10,516 nucleotides of DNA from positions 1,054 through 11,569 of the forward strand of contig MENB01000042.1 of the NCBI GenBank assembly GCA_001768125.1, read 5' to 3'. Positions 1-10,506 of the stretch are shown here, one piece after another. The position numbers were made by a program, and so were the translations under genes. Under the pieces are notes generated by a model. The model did not search any database, was not told the DNA's origin, and saw nothing but the letters and a program-made list of their open reading frames with translations. This stretch comes from Armatimonadetes bacterium RBG_19FT_COMBO_69_19. GTDB lineage: Bacteria; Sysuimicrobiota; Sysuimicrobiia; Sysuimicrobiales; Kaftiobacteriaceae. The number at the start of each line of letters is the position of its first letter. Position 1 is the stretch's first letter.

Positions 1-750
1 CAGGTTGCGGGCACCAGTCGCCTCGCGGATCATGATCACGAGGCCTCGCCGGAGCTTCTCGAGCGCCTCGTCCTTCGTCGTGCACTCGTGGTCAGAGCCG
101 ATGCCCACCGCCGCGTAGGCGTTGAGGCCCGGACCCACGAGCCCCGGCGCGTGGCCGTCGATGGGGCGCGTCCCCGCCGCCCGCAGCTTGTCGAGCACGT
201 CCCGGTCGGCGGCGAGGACCCCCGGATAGTTCATCATCTCGGCGAGGCCCAGCACCCACTTGTCCGCCATGAGACTCTCCAGGTCGTACGCGGACAGCTG
301 CGCGCCCGAACTCTCGAACGGGCCGGCCGGCACGCAGGAGGATGCCATGACGAAGACGCTGAGGGGATTGTACTTGGCGGACTCCAGCATGTAGCGGATG
401 CCGGTCATCCCCAGCACGTTGGCGATCTCGTGGGGATCGGCGATCACCGCCGTGGTGCCGCGCGGGACGACGGCCCGGGCGAACTCGGGCACCGTGACCA
501 TCGAGCTCTCGATGTGCACGTGGCCGTCGATGAACCCCGGAGCGAGGTAGGCGCCGTCGAGATCGACGACGTTCACCGCGCTGTACGCGCCGCCGTCGGG
601 GGGCGTGATCGCGGCGATGCGATCGTCGAGGACGGCCACGCCGCCCGGGACGACGTCCTGGTTGTACAGATCCACGATCCGGGCGTTGGTGAGGAGGAGG
701 TCGGCGGGCTCGTCGCCGCGGGCCACCCTGATGAGGCGGGCGAGGTCCAT
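1..750 (-). CDS. ade: Adenine deaminase, N-terminal part (runs off the left edge)
   Basis: This is the first 250 residues of an adenine deaminase (AdeC/COG1001 amidohydrolase), which hydrolyses adenine to hypoxanthine and ammonia in the cytoplasm. The frame is read leftward from an ATG at 750 and stays open to base 1. Family signatures are dense. The metal-site HxH lies in GFIDGHVHIESS (His77, His79), followed by ADPHEI (104-109), GLAEMMNYPGV (168-178), DGHAPGL (198-204) and GIGSDHECT (216-224). The N-terminus (MDLARLIRVARGDEPADLLL) is where family members normally begin, which supports this start, although the Shine-Dalgarno is poor. Full-length bacterial enzymes are near 570-600 residues, so less than half is visible. 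It is divergent from the phosphoribosyltransferase, giving adenine two competing fates from neighbouring transcripts. The family assignment is secure; the missing C-terminus cannot be judged. Confidence 0.95.
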   Translation of the reverse strand, partial: MDLARLIRVARGDEPADLLLTNARIVDLYNQDVVPGGVAVLDDRIAAITPPDGGAYSAVNVVDLDGAYLAPGFIDGHVHIESSMVTVPEFARAVVPRGTTAVIADPHEIANVLGMTGIRYMLESAKYNPLSVFVMASSCVPAGPFESSGAQLSAYDLESLMADKWVLGLAEMMNYPGVLAADRDVLDKLRAAGTRPIDGHAPGLVGPGLNAYAAVGIGSDHECTTKDEALEKLRRGLVIMIREATGARNL

Positions 751-827
751 TGCCAGAGCGCTTCGACGCCACCGCAGGGATTCACTTCCGGCAGAAAGAA
801 GGGAGGAGCGCGAGCGAGGAGGCGCGC
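751..827. promoter_or_regulatory. Divergent intergenic region between adenine deaminase and the purine operon
   Basis: These 77 bases separate two divergent starts, so both transcripts should initiate here or inside the opposite gene. I see no convincing -35/-10 pair on either strand. The region contains two purine-rich stretches, at 801-808 and 817-822. It also has a small GC inverted repeat (808-812 with 823-827) whose loop holds the second stretch. A shared operator for a purine-responsive regulator is plausible by position, but no regulator gene is visible. Confidence 0.45.
817..822 (+). promoter_or_regulatory. Strong Shine-Dalgarno (AGGAGG) setting the phosphoribosyltransferase start
   Basis: A perfect AGGAGG lies five bases before the ATG at 828. 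It decides the start of the phosphoribosyltransferase against an in-frame ATG at 750, which would overlap the adenine deaminase start region and add 26 residues with no family resemblance. The motif lies in the loop of a possible 5-bp GC stem (808-812/823-827). Confidence 0.8.
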
Positions 828-1412
828 ATGGCGCACATCCTGCCCTACAACGGACAACCGACGTACGACCTGGAGATCGCGGGGACGGTTCGCACCCTGC
901 CCCTGATCCAGGTCTCGCCCGACACGTGGATCGCCTACTACTACAGCCTCGGCGACACCGAGGTCATCGACCGCGCCGCCCGCCTGCTCGCGCCGAAGAT
1001 GAGCGGATGTGAGATCTTCATCACCACCGAGACCAAGGGCATCCCGCTCGCGCACGCCATCGCCACGTACCTGGGTCTGAAGCCCTACGTGGTGTGCCGC
1101 AAGGAAGTCCGCCCCTTCATGCTGTCGCCGCTCGTCGTCCGCTACAAACCGATCACCGCCAAGACGGAGCAGGAGCTGTTCATCGACGGCCGCGACGGCA
1201 AGAAGCTGGTGGGCCGGAAGGTCGGCATCGTGGACGACATCGTCAGCACCGGAGAGACCATCCAGGCGATGGCGGAACTCGTGCGCCGGGCCGGGGGCGT
1301 GGTGTTCGGCAAAGCGGCGCTGCTGCTCGAGGGCGATGAGCGCAAGGACGTCGAACACCTCGGGATCCTCCCGATCTTCAAGTCGAACAACTCGCAGGGC
1401 GGGCGCTCGTAG
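828..1412 (+). CDS. Adenine-type phosphoribosyltransferase (type I PRTase)
   Basis: The product is a 194-residue type I phosphoribosyltransferase, most like adenine phosphoribosyltransferase, which joins adenine and PRPP to give AMP and pyrophosphate. The PRPP loop is clear at residues 134-144 (IVDDIVSTGET), preceded by the usual hydrophobic strand and a flexible-hood region (ending TAKTEQELFIDG). The segment TETKGIPLAHAIATYLG followed by a VCRKE stretch matches the APT pattern in which a glycine-rich turn precedes the strand carrying RK. No DNA-binding domain precedes the catalytic fold, so a PurR/XpR-type regulator is less likely, although some PRTases in purine clusters are regulatory. The start is fixed by the AGGAGG at 817-822. 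It is the first gene of the plus-strand operon and is separated from the FAD subunit gene by 36 bases. The fold is certain; adenine rather than xanthine or guanine as substrate is inferred. Confidence 0.85.
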   Translation: MAHILPYNGQPTYDLEIAGTVRTLPLIQVSPDTWIAYYYSLGDTEVIDRAARLLAPKMSGCEIFITTETKGIPLAHAIATYLGLKPYVVCRKEVRPFMLSPLVVRYKPITAKTEQELFIDGRDGKKLVGRKVGIVDDIVSTGETIQAMAELVRRAGGVVFGKAALLLEGDERKDVEHLGILPIFKSNNSQGGRS

Positions 1413-1448: not shown

Positions 1449-2321
1449 ATGCGCATCCACCTCCCGCGGACACTCGACGAAGCACTCGAGATCAAAGCGA
1501 CCGACCCCGAGGCCGTGCCGCTGGCCGGGGGCACCGACCTCATGGTCCTCCTCAACTTCGACCGGCTGCGCCCGGCGGCGATGCTCGAGGTGAGCCGCCT
1601 GCCCGAACTGCGCGCCTGGCGCTGGGAGAACGGGACGTTCTTACTCGGCGCCGGCGTCACGTACAGCCGCATCGTGTCGTCTCTGACCGAGTTCAAGCCG
1701 CTCGTCGAAGCGTCGCGCACCGTCGGCTCCCCGCAGATCCGCAACCGGGCCACGATCGGGGGGAATCTGGGAACCGCATCCCCGGCGGGTGATGCGCTGC
1801 CCGTCCTGGCCGCCTATGACGCCGAGGTCGTGCTGATCAAGGCGGGCGGGAAGACGCGCACGCTGCCCTGGCACCAGTTCCTCGTCGGCCCCAAGAGAAA
1901 CGCGCTCGCCCCCGACGAGCTCATCCTCGGGGTACGGTGGACGGTAACCAGAGGCCCGGGGTCGTTCTCGAAGATCGGCACGCGCAACGCTATGGTCATC
2001 GCGGTCGCGGGGCTGTGTCTCGTCATGGATGAGGGGCAGCGGCAGCTCCGCGTCGCCTTGGGATCGGTCGGACCGACGATCCTCCGGGCCCCGGACGCGG
2101 AAGCGTTCGCATCGAAGGCGCTGACCGGCGCAGGCGCGTGGGAGGATCCCCGGGCGGCGCTGCCGCCCCGCGTGCTCGAGGAGTTCGGGGAGCGTGTGGC
2201 AGCGGCGGCCAGGCCGATCGACGACGTGCGGGGGACGGCCGCCTACCGCCGGCACGCCTGCAGGGTGCTGGGGCGGCGCGCGCTGGCCTGGGCGCTCGAG
2301 GACCGCAAGCTGCGCGGATAG
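1449..2321 (+). CDS. Xanthine-dehydrogenase-type molybdenum hydroxylase, FAD-binding subunit (CoxM/XdhB family)
   Basis: This 290-residue protein is the medium subunit of a three-component molybdenum hydroxylase. It holds FAD and passes electrons from the iron-sulfur subunit to the final acceptor. The two FAD motifs of the family are present: LAGGTDL (25-31) and TIGGNLGTASPAGD (102-115). A C-terminal CO-dehydrogenase-flavoprotein-like domain follows, with VALGSVGPTILRAPDAE near 200 and an RRHACRVLG-type end. Length is normal. The ATG at 1449 gives the usual N-terminus (MRIHLPRTLDEALEI), but no Shine-Dalgarno precedes it. The only other starts in frame after the upstream TAG (1410-1412) would be non-ATG codons such as CTG at 1434. 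It is followed after 11 bases by the 2Fe-2S subunit, and the Mo subunit comes one gene later. Its neighbours argue for a purine substrate rather than CO or nicotinate. Confidence 0.93.
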   Translation: MRIHLPRTLDEALEIKATDPEAVPLAGGTDLMVLLNFDRLRPAAMLEVSRLPELRAWRWENGTFLLGAGVTYSRIVSSLTEFKPLVEASRTVGSPQIRNRATIGGNLGTASPAGDALPVLAAYDAEVVLIKAGGKTRTLPWHQFLVGPKRNALAPDELILGVRWTVTRGPGSFSKIGTRNAMVIAVAGLCLVMDEGQRQLRVALGSVGPTILRAPDAEAFASKALTGAGAWEDPRAALPPRVLEEFGERVAAAARPIDDVRGTAAYRRHACRVLGRRALAWALEDRKLRG

Positions 2322-2332
2322 CGGCGAACAGG

Positions 2333-2800
2333 ATGATCATCCGGCTGAAGGTCAACGGAGAGTGGCGGCAGGCCGACGTCTGGCCGGGCGCGAGCCTGCT
2401 GCACGTCCTGCGCGAGCACCTGGGCCTCGTCGGGTCCAAGAACGCCTGTGAGCAGGGCGAGTGCGGATCGTGCTCCGTGTGGCTGGATGGCGATCTCGTG
2501 TGCTCCTGTCTCGTCCTGGCGGCGCAGGCGCACGAGCGTGAGGTGCAGACGGTCGAGTCGCTGGCGGAGGGGCCGCGCCTGCATCCGGTGCAGGAGGCGT
2601 TCCTCGAGGCCGGCGCGGTGCAGTGCGGGTTCTGCACGCCGGGACTGATCGTGGCCGTGGCCGACCTGCTCCAGCACGATCCGGCTCCGAGCGAGCTCAC
2701 CATCCGCGAGGCGCTGGCCGGCAACCTCTGCCGGTGCACCGGGTACGCGAAGATCATCGACGCCGTGAAGCTCGCCGCGCAGAAGATGGGGAACGCGTGA
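2333..2800 (+). CDS. Xanthine-dehydrogenase-type molybdenum hydroxylase, 2Fe-2S subunit (CoxS/XdhC family)
   Basis: This 155-residue small subunit carries two [2Fe-2S] clusters that link the molybdenum centre to FAD. The plant-ferredoxin-type cluster is bound by Cys39, Cys44, Cys47 and Cys59 (CEQGECGSC, then VCSCL). The second, all-helical cluster is bound by Cys98 and Cys101 (QCGFCTPG) and by Cys133 and Cys135 (GNLCRCTGY). All eight ligands are present; Cys57 is an extra cysteine beside the fourth ligand. The frame is open back to 2138, but homology begins at MIIRLKVNG, so the ATG at 2333 is the start. Its last base is shared with the ATG of the deaminase (TGATG), so the two are probably translationally coupled. 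The family call is secure. Confidence 0.95.
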   Translation: MIIRLKVNGEWRQADVWPGASLLHVLREHLGLVGSKNACEQGECGSCSVWLDGDLVCSCLVLAAQAHEREVQTVESLAEGPRLHPVQEAFLEAGAVQCGFCTPGLIVAVADLLQHDPAPSELTIREALAGNLCRCTGYAKIIDAVKLAAQKMGNA

Positions 2801-4170
2801 TGAGCGCGATCCTCATCCGGGGGTGCGACGCGGTGGTCACGATGGATGACGCCGGCACGGAGCTCTCCGGCGCGTCGCTGCTGCTGCGCGACGGCGTCAT
2901 CGCGTGGGTCGGCCGGGACGATGCGCCGGGCGCGCCCGAGGTCGGCGACACCGAGGTGATCGACGGTGCCGGGATGGTCGCGATCCCGGGGCTCATCAAC
3001 GCCCATCACCATCTGTACCAGTCGCTGACGCGCGTGCGCGCGCAGGGGCAGGGGCTGTTCGGCTGGCTGCGGGAGCTGTATCCGGTGTGGGCGGGCCTCA
3101 CGGTGGACTGGATGCGGGCCGCCGCGCGCGCCGGGCTGGCCGAGCTCGCGCTGTCCGGCTGCTCCACGACCACCGACCATCACTACGTCTTCCCGAACGG
3201 CGTGACCGGCGTCCTCGACGCCGAGGTCGATGTGGCGCGAGAGCTGGGACTCCGCTTCCATCCCTGCCGGGGATCGATGGATCTCGGACGATCGGACGGC
3301 GGGCTCCCTCCCGACGCGATCGTCGAGGACACCGACGACATCCTGGGGCACACCGAAGACGCCGTGCGGCGTCTCCACGATCCGTCTCCGGGGTCGATGC
3401 TGCGGGTGGCCGTCGCCCCCTGCTCGCCGTTCTCCGCGACCCGCCGGCTCATGGAGGAGTCGCAGGCGCTGGCCCGGCGCCTCGGGGTCCGGTTGCACAC
3501 CCACATCGCGGAGACGCTCGACGAGGAACGCTTCTGCCGTGAGTCCTTCGGGCTGCGTCCGGTCGAGCTCCTCGATGCGCTGGGGTGGTTGGGGCCGGAC
3601 GTGTGGCTCGCGCACTGTGTCCACCTGAACGCGGATGACGTCGGCCGCATCGCCCGGACGAAGACCTCCGTGGCCTGGTGTCCCACCTCGAACCTCCGCC
3701 TGGGATCGGGGCTCGCCCCCGCGCGAGAGCTGCTCGACGCGGGAGCCGTGGTCGGACTGGCCGTGGATGGCTCGGCGTCGAACGACAGCGGGGACATGCT
3801 GGCCGAGGTGCGCCAGGCGATGCTGGTGGCGCGAGGCCGGAGCGGCCCCGCGGCGATGAGCGCGCGCGACGCGCTGCGTGTGGCCACGCGGGGAAGTGCG
3901 GGCTGCCTGGGGCGCGATGACATCGGCTCGCTCCAGGCCGGGAAGCGGGCCGACGTCGCGCTGTTTGACCTCGCCAATCTCGCGTATGCCGGTGCCGAGG
4001 CGGACCCGGTGGCCGCGCTCGTGTACTGCCGGCCCCAGCGCGCGAGCTATCTGTTCGTCGAAGGGCGCCCGGTCGTGCGGGATGGGGAACTGGTCACCGC
4101 AGACGAAGGCGAGATCGGCCGGGCAGCCCGACGTCTCGGCCGGACGATCGCGAGCGAGGGCAGACGATGA
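2800..4170 (+). CDS. 8-oxoguanine deaminase (amidohydrolase family)
   Basis: This 456-residue amidohydrolase matches the 8-oxoguanine deaminase group (Pseudomonas Pa0142 type), which hydrolyses 8-oxoguanine to urate and ammonia. Metal and catalytic positions are in place: His69 and His71 (NAHHHLYQ), His233/His235 and Glu238 (HTHIAET), His272 (WLAHCVHL) and Asp323 (AVDGSASND). Segments typical of this group rather than generic ATZ/TRZ hydrolases include HPCRGSMDLGRSDGG, DPSPGSMLRVAVAPCSPFS and CPTSNLRLGSG. The frame extends back to 2623, but the protein family starts at MSAILIRGCDAVVT, so ATG 2800 is chosen. It overlaps the 2Fe-2S gene by one base and the Mo-subunit gene by four (ATGA). That places it inside the hydroxylase subunit set, much as ssnA lies among molybdoenzyme genes in E. 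coli. Guanine deaminase or SsnA-like activity is the main alternative. Confidence 0.88.
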   Translation: MSAILIRGCDAVVTMDDAGTELSGASLLLRDGVIAWVGRDDAPGAPEVGDTEVIDGAGMVAIPGLINAHHHLYQSLTRVRAQGQGLFGWLRELYPVWAGLTVDWMRAAARAGLAELALSGCSTTTDHHYVFPNGVTGVLDAEVDVARELGLRFHPCRGSMDLGRSDGGLPPDAIVEDTDDILGHTEDAVRRLHDPSPGSMLRVAVAPCSPFSATRRLMEESQALARRLGVRLHTHIAETLDEERFCRESFGLRPVELLDALGWLGPDVWLAHCVHLNADDVGRIARTKTSVAWCPTSNLRLGSGLAPARELLDAGAVVGLAVDGSASNDSGDMLAEVRQAMLVARGRSGPAAMSARDALRVATRGSAGCLGRDDIGSLQAGKRADVALFDLANLAYAGAEADPVAALVYCRPQRASYLFVEGRPVVRDGELVTADEGEIGRAARRLGRTIASEGRR

Positions 4171-6500
4171 GCACGAAAGTCCGTGAACGGACGAAAGGCG
4201 GCGTGGGCGAGAGCCTCCGACGCGTCGACGGCGCACCGAAGGTGAAGGGGCAGTTCCTCTACGGCAGCGACCTCTGGGCGGAGGACATGCTGTGGGGGTT
4301 CACGGTGCGCAGCCCGCACCCGCACGCGCGCATTCGCGCCATCGACATCTCGCAGGCGCTCACCTATCCCGGCGTACACGCCGCGCTCGTCGCCGCGGAC
4401 GTCCCGGGCAAGAAGACCTACGGCCTCGAAATTGTGGACCAGCCCGTGCTGGCCTGGGAACGCGTCCGCTACCAGGGCGAGCCCGTCGCCCTCGTCGCCG
4501 CCGCGGATCTGGAGACGGCCAAGCGGGCGGCAGAGCGCATCAAGGTCGACTACGAGGTGCTCCCGGCGGTGGCCGACATGGAGCAGGCGCTCCGCCGCGG
4601 CGCCCCGCGCGTCCACGACCACGGGAACGTCCTCAAACACATCCACATCGAGCACGGCAATCCGGATGTCCGAGCGGATCTCTGGGTGGACGGGTACTAC
4701 GAGACCGGCATGCAGGACCAGGCCATCCTCGGTCCTGAGTCGGGCATGGCCGTCCCGGCCGAGGACGGCGGGGTGGATCTCTACGTCGCCACGCAATGGC
4801 TGCACGTGGATCAGGAGCAGGTTGCACCGTGTCTTGACCTGCCGAAGGAGAAGGTCCGGCTGCACCTCGCCGGGGTGGGCGGCGCCTTCGGGTCACGCGA
4901 GGACGTGAGCATGCACATCCATGCGTGCATGCTCGCCCTGCGCACGGGGCGGTCCGTGAAGATGGTGTACTCGCGTGAGGAGTCGTTCTTCGGCCACGTG
5001 CATCGCCATCCGGCCCGCATCTGGATGCGCCACGGGGCCTCCCGCGACGGCAAACTCATCTGCGTGCGCGTGCGCATGGTCATCGACGGGGGCGCATACG
5101 CCTCCTCGTCGCCCGCCGTCATCACCAACGCGTCGACCTTCGCCGCGGGCCCGTACGAGGTCCCGAACGTGCTCATCGACGGCACGGCTGTCTTCACGAA
5201 CAACCCTCCATGCGGGGCGATGCGGGGATTCGGCGCGGTGCAGGCCTGCTTCGGGTACGAGGCGCAGATGGACAAGCTCGCCGCGCGGGTGGGGATCGAC
5301 CCCGTCGAGCTCCGTCTGCGCAACGCCCTGTCCACGGGCTCCGTGCTGCCTACCGGCCAGGTTATCCGGGGCAGCGCGCCGGTTCGCGAGGTGATCCGCC
5401 GGTGCGCGGCGCTTCCGCTTCCACCGCAGCCTGTGGAGCGCGACCCGATCACCTATCCCGGCGGCGCCGGGAATGTGAGCCGCGGCGAGCGCCTCCGCCA
5501 GGGGACCGGGTTTGCGATCGGCTACAAGAACATCGCCTACAGCGCGGGATTCGACGACTCCGCCGAAGCCCGCGTGAAGCTCTTCGCTGGGGCGGGCGGC
5601 CCGGTGGCCGAGGTGCACAGTGCCGCGGCCGAGGTGGGCCAGGGCGTGCACACCGTGCTGGTCCAGATCGCCCGGGAGGAGCTGGGGATCGATCAGGTGA
5701 CCCTCCATCCTCCGGACACCATGGTAGGGTCCGCCGGGTCCAGCTCCGCCTCCCGCCAGACGATGATGTCGGGCGGGGCGGTGCAGCTGGCCTGCCGGGC
5801 CGTCCGGGACCAGCTGTTCGAGCGGGTCAGGCAATGGGCGCGGACGCGCGGGCTCACGCTCGCCGGCGAGCTGCGCATCATGGGCGCGGACGTGGTCACG
5901 GATGGGCGGCGTCTCGCGCCCGTCGTCGACTTCCTCGAGCAGCCGGTCGTCGCCACCCGCGTCTACCATCATCGCAAGACGACGCCCATGGACGAGCGGG
6001 GGCAGGGGGACGTCCACGTGACGTTCGCGTTCGCGGCGCAGCGCGCGGTGGTCGAGGTCGATGAGGAGCTGGGGCTGGTGCGCGTCGTGCAGGTGGCCTG
6101 CGTTCAGGACGTGGGCCACGCGCTCAACCCGCAGAGCGTCTACGGGCAGATCGAGGGCGGCACGGCGCAGGGGCTGGGCCTCGCGGTCATGGAGGAGATC
6201 CAGATCAAGGACGGCCGCGTGCTCAATCCATCGTTCACCGACTATCTCATCCCCACGATCCTCGATATGCCGCCGGTGGTCTCCGAACTCGTGGAAGAGC
6301 CGGAGCCGGGCGTCCCCTTCGGCGCCAAGGGCGTCGGGGAACCCTCGACGGTGGTCTCCACGGCGGCGATCGCCGCCGCGCTGCGGGCCGCCACGGGGCG
6401 TGAGCTCAACCGCGTGCCGGTGCGTCCGGACGACCTGATCGGGCTCGAGCCGCCGCGAAAGTCCTCCGGCCCACCTCCGGCCGTCAAAGGCGTCGCCTGA
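4167..6500 (+). CDS. Xanthine-dehydrogenase-type molybdenum hydroxylase, molybdopterin-binding subunit
   Basis: This 777-residue catalytic subunit binds the molybdenum-pterin cofactor and hydroxylates its substrate with water as oxygen donor. The small a/b-hammerhead domain covers about residues 15-135 (GESLRRVDGAPKVKGQFLYG onward), followed by the two Mo-binding domains. Landmarks are GGAFGSRED (238-246), MRGFGAVQ (352-359), AEVGQG (488-493), SAGSSSASRQTMMSGGA, and GAKGVGEP (719-726) with the catalytic base Glu725. By comparison from memory with bovine xanthine oxidase, Glu245 aligns with the purine-binding Glu802 and Phe355 with Phe914. The position of Arg880 appears to be Asn321. The ATG at 4167 overlaps the deaminase stop (ATGA) and has GAGGG at 4156-4160. 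With the FAD and 2Fe-2S genes it makes a complete enzyme. Purine oxidation is the best guess from context; the exact substrate is not fixed. Confidence 0.92.
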   Translation: MSTKVRERTKGGVGESLRRVDGAPKVKGQFLYGSDLWAEDMLWGFTVRSPHPHARIRAIDISQALTYPGVHAALVAADVPGKKTYGLEIVDQPVLAWERVRYQGEPVALVAAADLETAKRAAERIKVDYEVLPAVADMEQALRRGAPRVHDHGNVLKHIHIEHGNPDVRADLWVDGYYETGMQDQAILGPESGMAVPAEDGGVDLYVATQWLHVDQEQVAPCLDLPKEKVRLHLAGVGGAFGSREDVSMHIHACMLALRTGRSVKMVYSREESFFGHVHRHPARIWMRHGASRDGKLICVRVRMVIDGGAYASSSPAVITNASTFAAGPYEVPNVLIDGTAVFTNNPPCGAMRGFGAVQACFGYEAQMDKLAARVGIDPVELRLRNALSTGSVLPTGQVIRGSAPVREVIRRCAALPLPPQPVERDPITYPGGAGNVSRGERLRQGTGFAIGYKNIAYSAGFDDSAEARVKLFAGAGGPVAEVHSAAAEVGQGVHTVLVQIAREELGIDQVTLHPPDTMVGSAGSSSASRQTMMSGGAVQLACRAVRDQLFERVRQWARTRGLTLAGELRIMGADVVTDGRRLAPVVDFLEQPVVATRVYHHRKTTPMDERGQGDVHVTFAFAAQRAVVEVDEELGLVRVVQVACVQDVGHALNPQSVYGQIEGGTAQGLGLAVMEEIQIKDGRVLNPSFTDYLIPTILDMPPVVSELVEEPEPGVPFGAKGVGEPSTVVSTAAIAAALRAATGRELNRVPVRPDDLIGLEPPRKSSGPPPAVKGVA

Positions 6501-6505
6501 TCGGG

Positions 6506-7885
6506 ATGCGCACGCTCTTCAGCGGTGGGACGCTCGTCGGTCCGGAAGGCACCCTCCAGGCCGACCTGCTCGTGGACGGCGAGCGCATCGCGGCGATCGG
6601 CCGCGATCTACCGCGCGGCGACGTCCGCGTCATCGACGCCGCCGGACGCTATCTGCTGCCCGGGGGCATCGACGTGCACACCCACCTCGACATGCCGCTG
6701 GACGACATCGCGTCGACCGACGACTTCCGCACAGGGCATGTCGCCGCGGCCTTCGGCGGGACCACGTCGCACATCGACTTCGTGATCCAGTCCAAGGACG
6801 GTTCGCTTCGGCAGGCCCTCGACGCCTGGCACGCCCTGGCCCAAGGCAAGGCCTGCATCGATTACGGTTTTCACATGACGATCGCCGACCCGCGCCCGGA
6901 TGTGCTCGACGAGATCGCGCATCTGCCGGAGTGGGGGATTACGACGGTCAAGGTGCTCATGGCCTACAAGGGCCGTCTGCAGCTGGACGATGCGCAGCTG
7001 CTGGCCGTGATGCGCCGCGCCGCGGAGCACGGGCTGCTCACCATGGTGCACTGCGAGAACGGCGACGTGATCGATGTACTCGAGCGCGAGGCGGTCGCGG
7101 CAGGGCACCGTGAGCCGAAGTATCATGCCATGGCGCGGCCGCCCGAGCTCGAGGGTGAGGCCACCGGCCGGGCTATCGCGATCGCCTCGGTCGCCGGTGC
7201 ACCGCTCTACGTGGTGCACCTTACGTGTGAAGCGGCCCTCGACCAGGTCCGCGCCGCCCAGCGGCGCGGACGACATGTATGGGCGGAAACCTGCATCCAG
7301 TACCTGTTCTTCACGGCCGCAGATCTGGACCGCCCCGACTTCGAAGGGGCCAAGGTCGTGTGCTCGCCGCCGTTCCGCACGCCCCAAGATCAGGCCGCGC
7401 TGTGGGAGGGGTTACGCGACGGGGCGCTCGCGGTGGTCTCGACCGACCACTGCCCGTTCAACTTTGCCAGGGAGAAGCAGCGCGGCCGCCATGACTTCAC
7501 GAAGATCCCCAACGGCGTCCCCGCGATCGAGGACCGCCTGCTCATGCTCCATCACGCCGGCGTGAACGGCGGGCGCATCCCGCTGTCGCGTTTCGTCGAG
7601 CTCACGGCGACCAATCCGGCCAGACTCTTCGGGCTCTACCCGCGCAAGGGGATCCTGGAGGTGGGCTCGGACGGAGACATCGTACTCTGGGACCCACGGG
7701 CGCGCCGCACAATCACCGCTGGCACCCACCACATGCGTGTAGACTACAACCTCTTCGAGGGTACGACCGTCACCGGCGCGCCCGCGGGGGTATGGGTTCG
7801 CGGTACGCAGGTGGTGGACGGCGAGCGCTTCACCGGCCGCGCCGGCGCCGGTCAGTTCCTGCGACGCGCGGCGTTCACGTCGTAG
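6506..7885 (+). CDS. Hydantoinase / dihydropyrimidinase (cyclic amidohydrolase)
   Basis: This 459-residue enzyme belongs to the D-hydantoinase/dihydropyrimidinase family, binuclear zinc hydrolases that open cyclic amide or imide rings. All metal ligands are recognisable: His58 and His60 (GGIDVHTHLD), the probable carboxylated Lys149 (VKVLMAYKG), His182 (MVHCENGD), His238 (VVHLTCEAAL) and Asp314 (STDHCPFNF). The substrate-backbone loop FTKIPNGVPAIEDR is the hydantoinase form, not the allantoinase one. Length is normal. The ATG lies five bases after the Mo-subunit stop with only a weak ribosome site, so coupling is likely. As in the E. coli hyuA-xdh region, its presence beside a purine hydroxylase suggests action on a ring intermediate below xanthine or urate. 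Simple dihydropyrimidine or hydantoin breakdown remains possible. The family is sure, the natural substrate is not. Confidence 0.92.
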   Translation: MRTLFSGGTLVGPEGTLQADLLVDGERIAAIGRDLPRGDVRVIDAAGRYLLPGGIDVHTHLDMPLDDIASTDDFRTGHVAAAFGGTTSHIDFVIQSKDGSLRQALDAWHALAQGKACIDYGFHMTIADPRPDVLDEIAHLPEWGITTVKVLMAYKGRLQLDDAQLLAVMRRAAEHGLLTMVHCENGDVIDVLEREAVAAGHREPKYHAMARPPELEGEATGRAIAIASVAGAPLYVVHLTCEAALDQVRAAQRRGRHVWAETCIQYLFFTAADLDRPDFEGAKVVCSPPFRTPQDQAALWEGLRDGALAVVSTDHCPFNFAREKQRGRHDFTKIPNGVPAIEDRLLMLHHAGVNGGRIPLSRFVELTATNPARLFGLYPRKGILEVGSDGDIVLWDPRARRTITAGTHHMRVDYNLFEGTTVTGAPAGVWVRGTQVVDGERFTGRAGAGQFLRRAAFTS

Positions 7886-7888
7886 CGA

Positions 7889-9220
7889 CTACTGCACCGG
7901 ACCCCGGGCGGTGACGTAGCGGCGGTCCACCTCTTCGACGCGATCACCCTCTTCATCCCAGAACGCGCGGCCACGCATCTTCCTGAGGTAATCCGCAGGA
8001 TATCCGAGGCGACTCCACATCGCCTCTTTCTGCGCGAAGAGCCGATCCTTCTGCTCGGGCGTCCGGGTATCGAGGATCTCTTCCGGCGTCGATGCGGCAA
8101 ACGGGCTGGCCTTCCAGCGGGCGAGCTCCCGCGGCACCCGCGCCCCCGCGCGGCGCCTGAGGTCGTCCATCACCGAGGGATAGCGGTCAAAGCCGTCGGT
8201 GGCGACGGTGACGACGTTGTCGGCCCGCCCGAGGCCGAGGTGCCTGGCCATACGCACGGCCGCGATGATGTTGCACACGCCCGAGACCCCGAGCACGCCG
8301 CCCAGCGGTCCCTCTTGCAGGGCCAGCAGGCTCCACAGGCAGTCCTCGTCGTGCACGAGGAGAACGTAGTCCGTGTTGAGGACGTTGTGGATGAGCGTGA
8401 CCATCTTGTCGCCCACGCCCTCGATCCGGTGGGAACCGAGGCCGTTGCTGTAGAGGGTCGGACACTCCCGGGGCTCGGGCGCGGCGACGATTGCCTCGGG
8501 GTATTTCGACTTGATCTCGTCTCCCGCCGCCAGGGTCCCCGCTGAGCCGGGGGCAGCAACGAAAAGGGTAATCTTTCCGTTGCCGTAACCGGCCGCAGCC
8601 TCAAGCGCGCTGCGACCGGTGACATGGCGGTGGAACCGGTAGTTGGGCAGGAGCGAGAACTGCTCGAGGACGATGAACTCCGGCCGGTTCATGTAGGCGG
8701 CGTGCGTGCGCTCCAGGGTCAGGATCACGTCCGATTCCGTGCCGGGCGTCAGGTCGAGCTCGCCGCCGTACCGCCGGATGCGCTCGTAGCGCTCGCGGCT
8801 CATGCCGTCCGGCATCACGACCACCGCCCGGTAGCCTTTGAGGCGCGCGACGTAGGCGGTGCCGATCCCGAAGTTCCCCGTCGATGGGCCGACGACGGTG
8901 TGGATCCCCGGCCGCGCGCGACCGTCCAGCTCGGCTTCCATCAGCGTCGTGTACACCGGCCCGACCTTGTGGCTGCCGGAGGGGAAGTCTCTTCCGATGA
9001 GGACGATGATGTTCGCGTCCACGCCGGTGAGCTCGCGGGGGAGAAGGATGTGGTTGATCGATCCGTCGGCGCGGCGCCAGGTGATGTTGAACAGGTCGAG
9101 CGGGTCGTCCTCGCGCGGGCGGGCGGCGAGCACGCGGGCACGGAAGGCCTCCGGCAGCAGACGTGGGTCGCGCATCTCAGCATAGCTCGGGCCGGGGATG
9201 TTCGTCGGGGTGTTCTTCAA
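7889..9220 (-). CDS. PLP-dependent fold-type II enzyme, cysteine-synthase-like, substrate unknown
   Basis: This 443-residue protein is a fold-type II PLP enzyme of the cysteine synthase/cystathionine beta-synthase family. The likely PLP lysine is Lys85 in SGSHKVG. The substrate/PLP loop is STGN (113-116). MPDGMSRERYERIRRYGGELDLTPG matches the CysK pattern MPxxMSxER, and GLGSHRIEGVG resembles its HKIQGIG segment. The phosphate-binding glycine loop is degenerate: PGSAGT (224-229) instead of GTGGT. It has about 50 extra N-terminal residues and a charged C-terminal tail of about 80 residues (EEILDTRTPEQKDRLFAQKE onward) absent from plain CysK. The start is TTG at 9220, with AGAGGA seven bases upstream and an overlap with the upstream stop; the next ATG (Met16) is less well placed. 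I do not recognise a characterised enzyme. Lyase or beta-replacement chemistry on an amino acid is expected from the family. Confidence 0.85.
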   Translation of the reverse strand: MKNTPTNIPGPSYAEMRDPRLLPEAFRARVLAARPREDDPLDLFNITWRRADGSINHILLPRELTGVDANIIVLIGRDFPSGSHKVGPVYTTLMEAELDGRARPGIHTVVGPSTGNFGIGTAYVARLKGYRAVVVMPDGMSRERYERIRRYGGELDLTPGTESDVILTLERTHAAYMNRPEFIVLEQFSLLPNYRFHRHVTGRSALEAAAGYGNGKITLFVAAPGSAGTLAAGDEIKSKYPEAIVAAPEPRECPTLYSNGLGSHRIEGVGDKMVTLIHNVLNTDYVLLVHDEDCLWSLLALQEGPLGGVLGVSGVCNIIAAVRMARHLGLGRADNVVTVATDGFDRYPSVMDDLRRRAGARVPRELARWKASPFAASTPEEILDTRTPEQKDRLFAQKEAMWSRLGYPADYLRKMRGRAFWDEEGDRVEEVDRRYVTARGPVQ

Positions 9221-9235
9221 CGCGTCGTCCTCTCT
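9217..9235 (-). promoter_or_regulatory. Ribosome site plus TTGA stop/start overlap coupling the two PLP genes
   Basis: On the minus strand AGAGGA (9233-9228, part of AGAGAGGA from 9235) precedes a TTG start at 9220 by seven bases. The TTG shares two bases with the TGA stop of the upstream gene (9219-9217), forming TTGA. The ribosome site lies inside the end of the threonine-synthase-like gene. This arrangement supports the rare TTG start and suggests the two proteins are made in linked amounts. Confidence 0.75.
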
Positions 9236-10506
9236 GCCGCGGGCGATGGCGTCGGCGCATCACGCTTTGCGATCATGTCCGCAACCGCGTCGAGCGAGGC
9301 GTCGATCTCGAACGCGCTGCCGGACGCGCGCAGCGTGCTCGGAATATCCTTGAGGCCGGTGCCCGTGATCATGAGGAGGACTCGTTCGCTCCTGCTGATC
9401 GCACCCCGCTCCAGCAAGTGTGCGAGCGCCGCCACGCCTGCGACTGCGGCCGGCTCGCCCCAGATGCCCGTCCTCTGGGCCAGCAGCCGCATCGCCTCCA
9501 GGATCTCCTCATCGCTGACCGTGACGTAGGTGCCACCCGAATCGCGGACGGCGCGAAGGGCCTTGCGCCAGTTGCGCGGCGTCCCGACGGCGATGCCGTC
9601 CGCGATGGTCTGCGACGGACCCGGGTGGAGGCTCTGGCCGGAGCGGAACGCCTGCTCGATCGGCGAGGCGCCGGCGGCCTGCACCCCGATGACGCGTGGC
9701 GTGCGGGAGGTCAACCCGATGCGCTGCATCTCGTGGAGGCCCTTGTAGATGCCGGCCAGCGTGCAGCCGTCGCCGACGGGGACCACCACCGCATCCGGCG
9801 GGTCCCAGCCGAGCTGCTCGGCGATCTCCAGCCCGGCGGTCTTTTTCCCTTCTACTAATACGGGGTTCACGGCGCTGTTCCGGTTGTACCACCCCCAGCG
9901 CGCTGCAGCTTCCATGGAGATTCTGAACGCGTCCTCGTAGGTGCCCCGGACCTTGAAGACGGTGGCGCCGTAGATCAACATCTGCGCAAGCTTCGACTGC
10001 GATGCTTGCGCAGGCAAGAAGATGTACGGGTGCAGGCCCAGCTGCGCCGATTGCCCGGCGAGCGACGATGCCGCGTTGCCGGTCGAAGCGCAGGTGATCT
10101 CCCGCCTGCCCGCCTGCGCGGCCCGCACCGCGCCGACTGAGCTCGCGCGATCCTTCAGCGATCCCGTGGGGTTACGGCCTTCATCCTTCACGTAGACGGT
10201 CCGCAACCCGAAGTAGCGCGCGAGCGGCGCCACCTCGTGGACCGGGGTCCATCCCACGGGAAGTAGAGGGCGTGCCGCCTCGCGGGCAACGGGGAGCAGC
10301 GGTAGATATCGCCAATGGCTGGGATCCGGATGGGCAGCCAAGTGCTCCCGCGTGAGCAGATGCCGCACAGCGTCGTAGTCGTACTGGATATCGAGGATGC
10401 CGTCCAGCCCGCATGAGGGGCACGTGTACACCGCTTCCCCCGGAGCGTACCTGCGCTCGCAGGAGGTACAGACGAGGTCGGTCGCGTTCCCCCAATCCGA
10501 CGACAT
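9217..10506 (-). CDS. Threonine-synthase-like PLP enzyme with N-terminal zinc ribbon
   Basis: This 429-residue protein resembles threonine synthase, which turns O-phosphohomoserine into threonine. A zinc-ribbon-like N-terminus has Cys13, Cys16, Cys29 and Cys32, seen in archaeal and some bacterial ThrC proteins. The PLP lysine is Lys118 (NPTGSLKDRAS), the substrate loop is ASTGNAAS (140-147), NPVLVEGKKTAGLEIAEQL lies near 214-232, and the phosphate loop is GDGCT (245-249). The ATG at 10506 has a weak upstream site, and the frame stays open to the window edge, so a slightly longer form cannot be excluded. No homoserine dehydrogenase or homoserine kinase gene is in view, and the gene is coupled to a second fold-type II enzyme. 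A catabolic role on another amino acid is therefore a real alternative to threonine synthesis. The fold is certain, the reaction only likely. Confidence 0.85.
   Translation of the reverse strand: MSSDWGNATDLVCTSCERRYAPGEAVYTCPSCGLDGILDIQYDYDAVRHLLTREHLAAHPDPSHWRYLPLLPVAREAARPLLPVGWTPVHEVAPLARYFGLRTVYVKDEGRNPTGSLKDRASSVGAVRAAQAGRREITCASTGNAASSLAGQSAQLGLHPYIFLPAQASQSKLAQMLIYGATVFKVRGTYEDAFRISMEAAARWGWYNRNSAVNPVLVEGKKTAGLEIAEQLGWDPPDAVVVPVGDGCTLAGIYKGLHEMQRIGLTSRTPRVIGVQAAGASPIEQAFRSGQSLHPGPSQTIADGIAVGTPRNWRKALRAVRDSGGTYVTVSDEEILEAMRLLAQRTGIWGEPAAVAGVAALAHLLERGAISRSERVLLMITGTGLKDIPSTLRASGSAFEIDASLDAVADMIAKRDAPTPSPAAERTTR

What the first reader, a model, noticed from the sequence alone, without database searches (positions are those of the whole stretch)
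2333..6500. 8-oxoguanine deaminase gene placed between the 2Fe-2S and Mo subunit genes of a purine hydroxylase
The deaminase start shares a base with the 2Fe-2S stop and its stop overlaps the Mo-subunit start. It is therefore made as one of the hydroxylase's own cistrons. 8-Oxoguanine deaminase is usually discussed as clearing oxidative damage. This position suggests instead a metabolic route in which the hydroxylase oxidises guanine at C8 and the deaminase yields urate, bypassing guanine deaminase and xanthine. The gene arrangement is seen directly; the route is inferred.
Basis: partly seen in the sequence, partly recalled or inferred. Interest (0 to 1): 0.72.

Follow-up and report, generated by a model that had tools for sequence, protein, structure and literature searches.

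The report
Deaminase gene inside a urate-making operon
A gene for an enzyme thought to clean up oxidised guanine sits inside the genes for a purine-oxidising enzyme in several groups of bacteria, which suggests that the two together turn guanine into uric acid, possibly by a route not yet described.

Summary
Confirmed: FAD, 2Fe-2S, 8-oxoguanine-deaminase-type amidohydrolase and Mo subunit genes run in that order at 1449-6500, with a one-base shared stop/start and a four-base overlap. Of 80 loci picked by the deaminase, 44 show the same embedding, in Sysuimicrobiota, Chloroflexota and Actinomycetota. Picked by the Mo subunit, 18 of 22 genomes have the deaminase immediately upstream, though 21 of the 22 are of the window's own order. 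Deaminase and Mo trees agree (r 0.90). In 11 of the 12 actinobacterial genomes with uricase it adjoins the operon, so urate is the likely product.

The C8-first route (guanine to 8-oxoguanine to urate) is plausible, unproven; deamination first (via xanthine) is not excluded. For: family kinetics, a conserved active-site Cys, no GuaD over cut-off, Asn at the bovine Arg880 site in 69 of 69 readable relatives. Against: deaminase-less operons beside uricase (G018, G039), genomes where this is the only close Mo subunit found, and E. coli XdhA also lacking that Arg. Searches of open-licence papers showed me none linking the deaminase to a hydroxylase operon.

The parts
1449..2321 (+). FAD subunit of the hydroxylase
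   Evidence: FAD_binding_5 and CO_deh_flav_C; best NCBIfam XdhB 145 bits, below its cut-off 310
2333..2800 (+). 2Fe-2S subunit of the hydroxylase
   Evidence: Fer2_2 and Fer2; best NCBIfam 185 bits, below its cut-off 290
2798..2802 (+). TGATG: stop of 2Fe-2S and start of deaminase share one base
   Evidence: sequence
2800..4170 (+). 8-oxoguanine-deaminase-type amidohydrolase (DEAM)
   Evidence: NF006055 634 bits, cut-off 532; nearest solved chains 7ww2 and 3hpa
3421..3423 (+). DEAM Cys208 codon, in the PCS motif where E. coli GuaD has PRF
   Evidence: alignment; position computed from the start codon; contact with O8 is recalled from Hall 2010
4167..4170 (+). ATGA: start of Mo subunit overlaps stop of deaminase
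   Evidence: sequence
4167..6500 (+). Mo subunit of the hydroxylase (Asn type)
   Evidence: TIGR03196 pucD 853 bits, cut-off 784
5127..5129 (+). Mo subunit Asn321 codon, aligned with residue 310 (Arg) of R. capsulatus XdhB (1jro_B)
   Evidence: pairwise alignment, multiple alignment; position computed from the start codon; that R. capsulatus Arg310 equals bovine Arg880 is recalled
6506..7885 (+). dihydropyrimidinase/hydantoinase, directly downstream, probably same operon
   Evidence: TIGR02033 587 bits, cut-off 393
825..1412 (+). phosphoribosyltransferase upstream, same strand (start uncertain; the ORF opens at 750)
   Evidence: NF005592 190 bits, cut-off 143

Best explanation
This is a conserved urate-forming purine operon in which a molybdenum hydroxylase (FAD, 2Fe-2S, Mo subunits) and an 8-oxoguanine-deaminase-type amidohydrolase are made together. 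The hydroxylase oxidises free purines, C8 included. The deaminase removes the 2-amino group, so that guanine also ends as urate. Urate is then consumed by a neighbouring uricase (Actinobacteria, some relatives) or by reductive urate enzymes (other relatives). Shown: gene order, families, conservation, linkage to urate-consuming genes, active-site residues. Inferred: the joint guanine-to-urate function. Unresolved: whether guanine is hydroxylated first (via 8-oxoguanine) or deaminated first (via xanthine); I lean slightly to C8 first.
For: Overlaps and order. Embedding in 44 of 80 deaminase-picked loci, plus 7 with one side off the contig and 4 with the order Mo-DEAM. DEAM immediately upstream in 18 of 22 genomes found by the Mo subunit, 21 of the 22 from the window's order. 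Trees agree, r 0.90. In the Mo tree the Asn-type subunits group together, DEAM-less ones scattered inside. Uricase directly upstream of the FAD gene in 11 of the 12 actinobacterial genomes that have one (coordinates), and next to or within 2 kb of the operon in G018, G039 and G037. Near the operon, TIGR03311-type XDH in L079, L104, L070, L058 (coordinates) and SsnA-like proteins, just under their cut-off, in L079, L099, L104, L058. Deaminase keeps Gln74, Tyr129, Cys208, Glu238, His272, Asp323 of the solved relatives. No GuaD over cut-off in 61 and 16 genomes. For C8 first: AtzB-cluster enzymes, a cluster that includes P. aeruginosa 8-oxoguanine deaminase, have low guanine activity, 2.2e3 per M per s or less, against about 1e5-1e6 for the GuaD cluster (PMC13054789, section 7).
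Against: No activity was measured for any member of this operon. Uricase stays next to the hydroxylase where the deaminase is absent from the operon (G018, G039), so the hydroxylase can serve urate formation without it. The window's own genome shows no uricase and no TIGR03311 XDH; it is 81% complete. Two actinobacterial-labelled MAGs with the operon (L094, L104) show no uricase. 22 of 80 deaminase loci have no Asn-type hydroxylase in view; L148 has uricase, FAD, FeS and deaminase but no Mo gene next to them.
Confidence: 0.72

Rival explanations
1. C8 first: the hydroxylase oxidises guanine to 8-oxoguanine and the deaminase turns it into urate; xanthine is bypassed.
For: Low guanine efficiency of the deaminase's cluster (PMC13054789 section 7); preference of Pa0142 for 8-oxoguanine is recalled from Hall 2010. 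Asn replaces the Arg that, in one of two published binding models, contacts the 2-keto group of xanthine, in 69 of 69 readable subunits (PMC4334109 passages). RECALLED, not from a call: Streptomyces cyanogenus xanthine dehydrogenase oxidises guanine with a lower Km than xanthine (Ohe and Watanabe 1979; only the citation was seen).
Against: E. coli XdhA, needed for xanthine consumption (PMC12507026 passage), also lacks that Arg, so the Asn is weak evidence. DEAM-less operons keep uricase. In G387 and G392 the Asn-type subunit is the only TIGR03196 match at E 1e-60 or better, so it probably also oxidises (hypo)xanthine. Guanine is a non-substrate of bovine enzyme (recalled).
Confidence: 0.4
2. 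Deamination first: the deaminase acts as the operon's guanine deaminase, giving xanthine, which the hydroxylase oxidises to urate; an ordinary pathway with a replaced enzyme.
For: URA3 and Vcz of the same family convert guanine to xanthine (PMC6186785 passages, data not shown there). No GuaD over cut-off. Of 20 PF00383 hits in eight operon-bearing genomes 16 were opened: 15 look like dCMP or cytidine deaminases (naming by motif, recalled; four of the 15 scanned), one is unassigned (L232, scanned); four were not examined.
Against: Low guanine efficiency of characterised relatives; the Arg-Phe pair of GuaD is Cys-Ser here; TIGR02967 score 141 against cut-off 375.
Confidence: 0.37
3. Damage clearing or scavenging: the deaminase disposes of free 8-oxoguanine from repair, and shares the operon only because both products are urate.
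For: Usual account of the family (PMC13054789 section 7; PMC9608346 passages).
Against: Tight, conserved embedding with uricase and the hydroxylase fits a bulk catabolic role better.
Confidence: 0.13
4. Another amino-heterocycle is the true substrate (isocytosine, N2-methylated guanines, a pterin).
For: Broad substrate range of the cluster, including N2,N2-dimethylguanine hydrolases and isocytosine.
Against: Linkage to uricase and urate-degrading genes.
Confidence: 0.1

Closest known systems
8-oxoguanine deaminase family (NF006055; P. aeruginosa Pa0142; Sargasso enzyme; Vcz/URA3)
   Same: Family score over cut-off; active-site residues of the solved relatives conserved
   Different: Here it is a cistron between two hydroxylase subunit genes; the papers seen study the enzymes alone
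Bacillus-type xanthine dehydrogenase PucA-E (TIGR03196)
   Same: Mo subunit over the pucD cut-off; B. subtilis is the only control genome that rings at E 1e-120
   Different: The two pucD-like subunits of another type over the cut-off (L190, L191; organisms not named) have Phe at the Arg880 site and Mo before 2Fe-2S; in L190 only a 31% amidohydrolase is near, in L191 none by this search; the genome of L191 (G094) has a GuaD over cut-off elsewhere
Oxidative purine catabolism with uricase (TIGR03383/PF01014)
   Same: Uricase adjacent to the operon in Actinobacteria and some relatives
   Different: Textbook guanine entry is GuaD; here no GuaD passes the cut-off in the 61 and 16 genomes searched and an 8-oxoguanine-type deaminase is embedded
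Reductive uric acid pathway (XdhD, YgfK or F420 enzyme, SsnA, HyuA, YgeW, YgeX; PMC12507026)
   Same: Genes of that kind lie near this operon in several loci: TIGR03311 XDH, SsnA-like, an F420-type LLM enzyme (L079), an OTC- or YgeW-like carbamoyltransferase (L104)
   Different: Those use an Arg-type hydroxylase and SsnA; the window's deaminase is not SsnA (124 bits, cut-off 444)

Membership tests
8-oxoguanine deaminase (NF006055) | curated family score | tested here: met
   634 bits, cut-off 532
8-oxoguanine deaminase (NF006055) | Gln after strand 1, Tyr after strand 2, Cys after strand 4, catalytic Glu, His, Asp | tested here: met
   Q74, Y129, C208, E238, H272, D323 align with 3hpa and 7ww2; strand assignment and roles recalled, an active-site Cys also in PMC6186785
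8-oxoguanine deaminase (NF006055) | higher activity on 8-oxoguanine than on guanine | not testable with these tools
   needs enzyme assay
guanine deaminase GuaD (TIGR02967) | curated family score | tested here: not met
   141 bits, cut-off 375
guanine deaminase GuaD (TIGR02967) | Arg-Phe pair (PRF) in the base pocket, motif recalled | tested here: not met
   E. coli GuaD PRF, window PCS
xanthine dehydrogenase Mo subunit (TIGR03196) | curated family score | tested here: met
   853 bits, cut-off 784
xanthine dehydrogenase Mo subunit (TIGR03196) | Gln767 and Glu802 equivalents (equivalence of numbering recalled) | tested here: met
   Gln and Glu in the alignment; Glu in 70 of 70 close relatives
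xanthine dehydrogenase Mo subunit (TIGR03196) | Arg880 equivalent as in bovine and R. capsulatus enzymes | tested here: not met
   Asn321; but E. coli XdhA has Ala there, so not a strict requirement
SsnA of the reductive urate pathway (NF005540) | curated family score | tested here: not met
   124 bits, cut-off 444

The most novel reading that the evidence does not exclude
8-Oxoguanine is a deliberate metabolic intermediate: an Asn-type molybdenum hydroxylase is a guanine C8-hydroxylase, and its operon-encoded deaminase turns 8-oxoguanine straight into urate, a guanine-to-urate route through neither guanine deaminase nor xanthine, spread over at least three phyla.
Probability: 0.38. Interest if true: 0.78.

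Novelty: new variant of a known kind. Interest (0 to 1): 0.52.

Why it matters
If the hydroxylase makes 8-oxoguanine, a molecule known as a damage marker becomes a normal catabolic intermediate, and many genes named as 8-oxoguanine deaminase would need another reading. Even if deamination comes first, the deaminase would fill the missing guanine step in bacteria without recognisable GuaD. Cultured hosts with the operon (Micromonospora L111, Dactylosporangium L114, Phytohabitans L118, Actinocorallia L134) make the question directly testable.

Tried and rejected
Tried: GuaD absence as a test. It does not discriminate: of 386 genomes GuaD passes its cut-off in 9, the deaminase in 74, both in 1, about 1.7 expected if independent; and absence would fit either order of steps. 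In those two searches at most four candidates per genome were scored.

Tried: the Arg880-to-Asn change as proof of guanine specificity. Rejected as proof. Among 29 other Mo subunits the site holds R 11, L 4, K 4, A 2, N 2, F 2, Y 2, H 1, D 1. E. coli XdhA has Ala, E. coli XdhD has Asn. PMC4334109 also reports a second binding model with the Arg at the 6-position.

Considered and rejected: a recent chance insertion (conserved in several phyla, trees agree); an SsnA or GuaD gene misnamed as 8-oxoguanine deaminase; a pseudogene (window ORFs open, conserved).

Not run: structure prediction and fold search, because they would not settle the substrate and no ligand modelling was on hand. Hall 2010 is not held, so its numbers are recalled. 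The amidohydrolases L047 (G018), L239 (G386) and L240 (G390) were scanned as possible other guanine deaminases; none passes a guanine-deaminase cut-off.

Rows dropped before the counts: seven loci judged duplicates by equal length and hit positions; Mo hits spanning 200 residues or fewer, or not covering residues 245 and 321. The 80 genome loci were picked by the deaminase and are the best 80 of 582 relatives from a capped list of matches, so their share of embedding is biased upward.
Full report
OBSERVATION. The window carries, on the + strand, FAD 1449-2321, 2Fe-2S 2333-2800, deaminase 2800-4170, Mo 4167-6500 and a dihydropyrimidinase 6506-7885. The 2Fe-2S stop and deaminase start share one base (TGATG); the deaminase stop and Mo start overlap by four (ATGA). 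The deaminase passes the NF006055 8-oxoguanine deaminase cut-off (634 against 532 bits) and the Mo subunit the TIGR03196 pucD cut-off (853 against 784); the other two subunits fit xanthine-dehydrogenase-type models below cut-off.

WHERE IT IS. The genome G000 is a 2.24 Mb draft, 80.8% complete. Named relatives close by deaminase are MAGs labelled ANGP1, Armatimonadetes (one of them CSP1-3) and others; one is placed by NCBI in Candidatus Sysuimicrobiota.

CONSERVATION. Of 26 loci taken from G000 and other genomes, 13 show FAD-FeS-DEAM-Mo (two with Mo cut by the contig end), 8 show part of it, most cut by contig ends, and 5, all from outside the order, do not. A scan of named genomes by a deaminase alignment kept the best 80 loci of 582. 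Of these 80, 44 are embedded between FeS and Mo, 7 show one side with the other off the contig, 4 have Mo then deaminase, 3 lie near with other spacing, 22 have no such hydroxylase in view. The 44 are 26 Actinomycetota, 12 Chloroflexota, 2 labelled Armatimonadota, 1 Sysuimicrobiota and 3 without phylum. That sample is biased, being picked by the deaminase. The Mo-family search in 386 genomes is not: leaving out two pucD-like proteins with another residue pattern (G094, G368), 22 genomes have a full-length match of 775 bits or more; all 22 have the Asn described below, and 18 have the deaminase immediately upstream. The exceptions are G014, G018, G039 and G286. But 21 of the 22 are of the window's order, so they are not independent. 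G286 has a deaminase about 35 kb away; G014, G018 and G039 have none over cut-off.

HISTORY. A FastTree tree of 99 Mo subunits puts the 70 close relatives together (with one unstable long row, L193), the deaminase-less ones scattered inside. Embedding is most simply old, lost several times and moved downstream once; the root was not inferred. Mo and deaminase distances correlate with r 0.90 over 58 pairs; no permutation of 2000 came near. Other, distant hydroxylases also neighbour this deaminase: G055, G203, G342 (Mo then deaminase) and L257 (FAD-FeS-Mo-deaminase), so the association is not confined to one hydroxylase lineage.

PRODUCT. Of 16 genomes reached through loci, 14 are labelled actinobacterial; 12 of these 14 have uricase, the two MAGs L094 and L104 and the two other genomes do not. 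In 11 of the 12, uricase ends about 1.4-1.5 kb before the deaminase match, the room taken by FAD and FeS on the same strand; in one of the 11 (L148) no Mo gene follows. Blastococcus G397 is the exception. In the relatives search uricase is in 4 of 61 genomes, all of family f7. It directly precedes FAD in G018 and G039, lies within about 2 kb in G037, and is on another contig in G024; the G018 protein passes TIGR03383. An Arg-type Mo subunit lies close to the operon in L070, L079, L093, L095, L099 and L104. TIGR03311 is passed in L079 and L104 and, by coordinates, in L070 and L058. SsnA is the best model, under its cut-off, of the scanned neighbours in L058, L079, L099, L104 and L110; an F420-type LLM enzyme is in L079 and an OTC- or YgeW-like carbamoyltransferase in L104. 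This resembles the reductive uric acid pathway, for which Chloroflexota are reported to have an F420-type enzyme (PMC12507026: abstract and passages). So the operon's product is most likely urate. In G000 itself neither uricase nor TIGR03311 was found; the sister genomes G001 and G002 have TIGR03311.

THE DEAMINASE. It aligns with 3hpa and 7ww2 and keeps Gln74, Tyr129, Cys208, Glu238, His272, Asp323; all 17 further deaminases aligned have the PCS motif, where E. coli GuaD has PRF. An active-site cysteine is named for 8-oxoguanine deaminases in PMC6186785 (passages); that it contacts O8 is recalled from Hall 2010, not held. Relatives URA3 and Vcz act on isocytosine, guanine and 8-oxoguanine. 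PMC13054789 (section 7) gives AtzB-cluster enzymes, a cluster that holds 8-oxoguanine deaminase, guanine efficiencies of 2.2e3 per M per s or less, and GuaD-cluster enzymes about 1e5-1e6.

THE HYDROXYLASE. Pairwise and multiple alignments place window Asn321 at residue 310 (Arg) of R. capsulatus XdhB. It is Asn in 69 of 69 readable close relatives; one further row has a gap. The Glu802 equivalent is kept in 70 of 70. PMC4334109 (passages) says contact of the 2-keto group with this Arg matters for C8 hydroxylation of xanthine, and that a mutant of it in A. nidulans lost xanthine but kept hypoxanthine activity; it also reports a rival binding model with the Arg at the 6-position. Asn could accept the 2-amino group of guanine; this is inference. 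It is no proof: the site varies widely in the family, and E. coli XdhA, needed for xanthine consumption (PMC12507026 passage), has Ala. In G387 and G392 the Asn-type subunit is the only TIGR03196 match at 1e-60, so it probably handles hypoxanthine and xanthine too.

GUANINE DEAMINASE ELSEWHERE. TIGR02967 passes its cut-off in 0 of 61 genomes, 0 of 16 genomes through loci and 9 of 386 in the wide sample; two of 14 control genomes, E. coli and Caulobacter, pass it. PF00383 gave 1 to 4 hits in each of eight operon-bearing genomes, 20 in all. Sixteen were opened by motif: 15 look like dCMP or cytidine deaminases, the other is L232 of G029. Five were scanned: two best match ComEB below cut-off, two pass cytidine deaminase, L232 matches nothing. 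Four were not examined.

VERDICT. The operon most likely turns purines, guanine included, into urate, with the deaminase as a fixed partner. Order of steps: C8 first 0.40, deamination first 0.37, damage clearing 0.13, other substrate 0.10. Print: 10 held papers name the deaminase and 2 of them also xanthine dehydrogenase; the passages read treat it as a damage-clearing or promiscuous enzyme or list it for urate. Further searches gave no listing or passage joining it to a hydroxylase operon; only open-licence papers are held, and most listed papers were not opened.

Noticed in passing
window 7889-9220 (-) and 9217-10506 (-): Two overlapping PLP-enzyme genes (CysK/SbnA-like; threonine-synthase-like, 314 bits against cut-off 303) next to the operon. 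A relative of the first lies between Mo and deaminase in L258, and relatives of the second directly precede the deaminase in L140 and L155; they might be end enzymes of urate breakdown, like YgeX.
   Followed up: partly
window 6506-7885: Dihydropyrimidinase gene with 5 bases between it and the Mo stop; kept in sister genomes (L053, L086); possibly a ring-opening step of urate breakdown (HyuA-like).
   Followed up: no
window 1-750 (-) and 825-1412 (+): Adenine deaminase (cut by the window end) and a phosphoribosyltransferase flank the operon, as in several relatives: other purine genes.
   Followed up: no
L118 11332-13529: Mo subunit of Phytohabitans flavus matches in two overlapping pieces in different frames, a possible frameshift or sequencing error.
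   Followed up: no
L168 (G008:C142 1587-3833) and L042 (G045:C16 16734-18086): One stop codon inside the family match of a Mo subunit and of a deaminase.
   Followed up: no
L232 1474-2145: A CDA-fold protein of G029 that matches no NCBIfam model at 1e-10.
   Followed up: no
L115, L131, L154, L156: Four Chloroflexota loci with the deaminase after, not before, the Mo gene; one clade in the Mo tree.
   Followed up: partly
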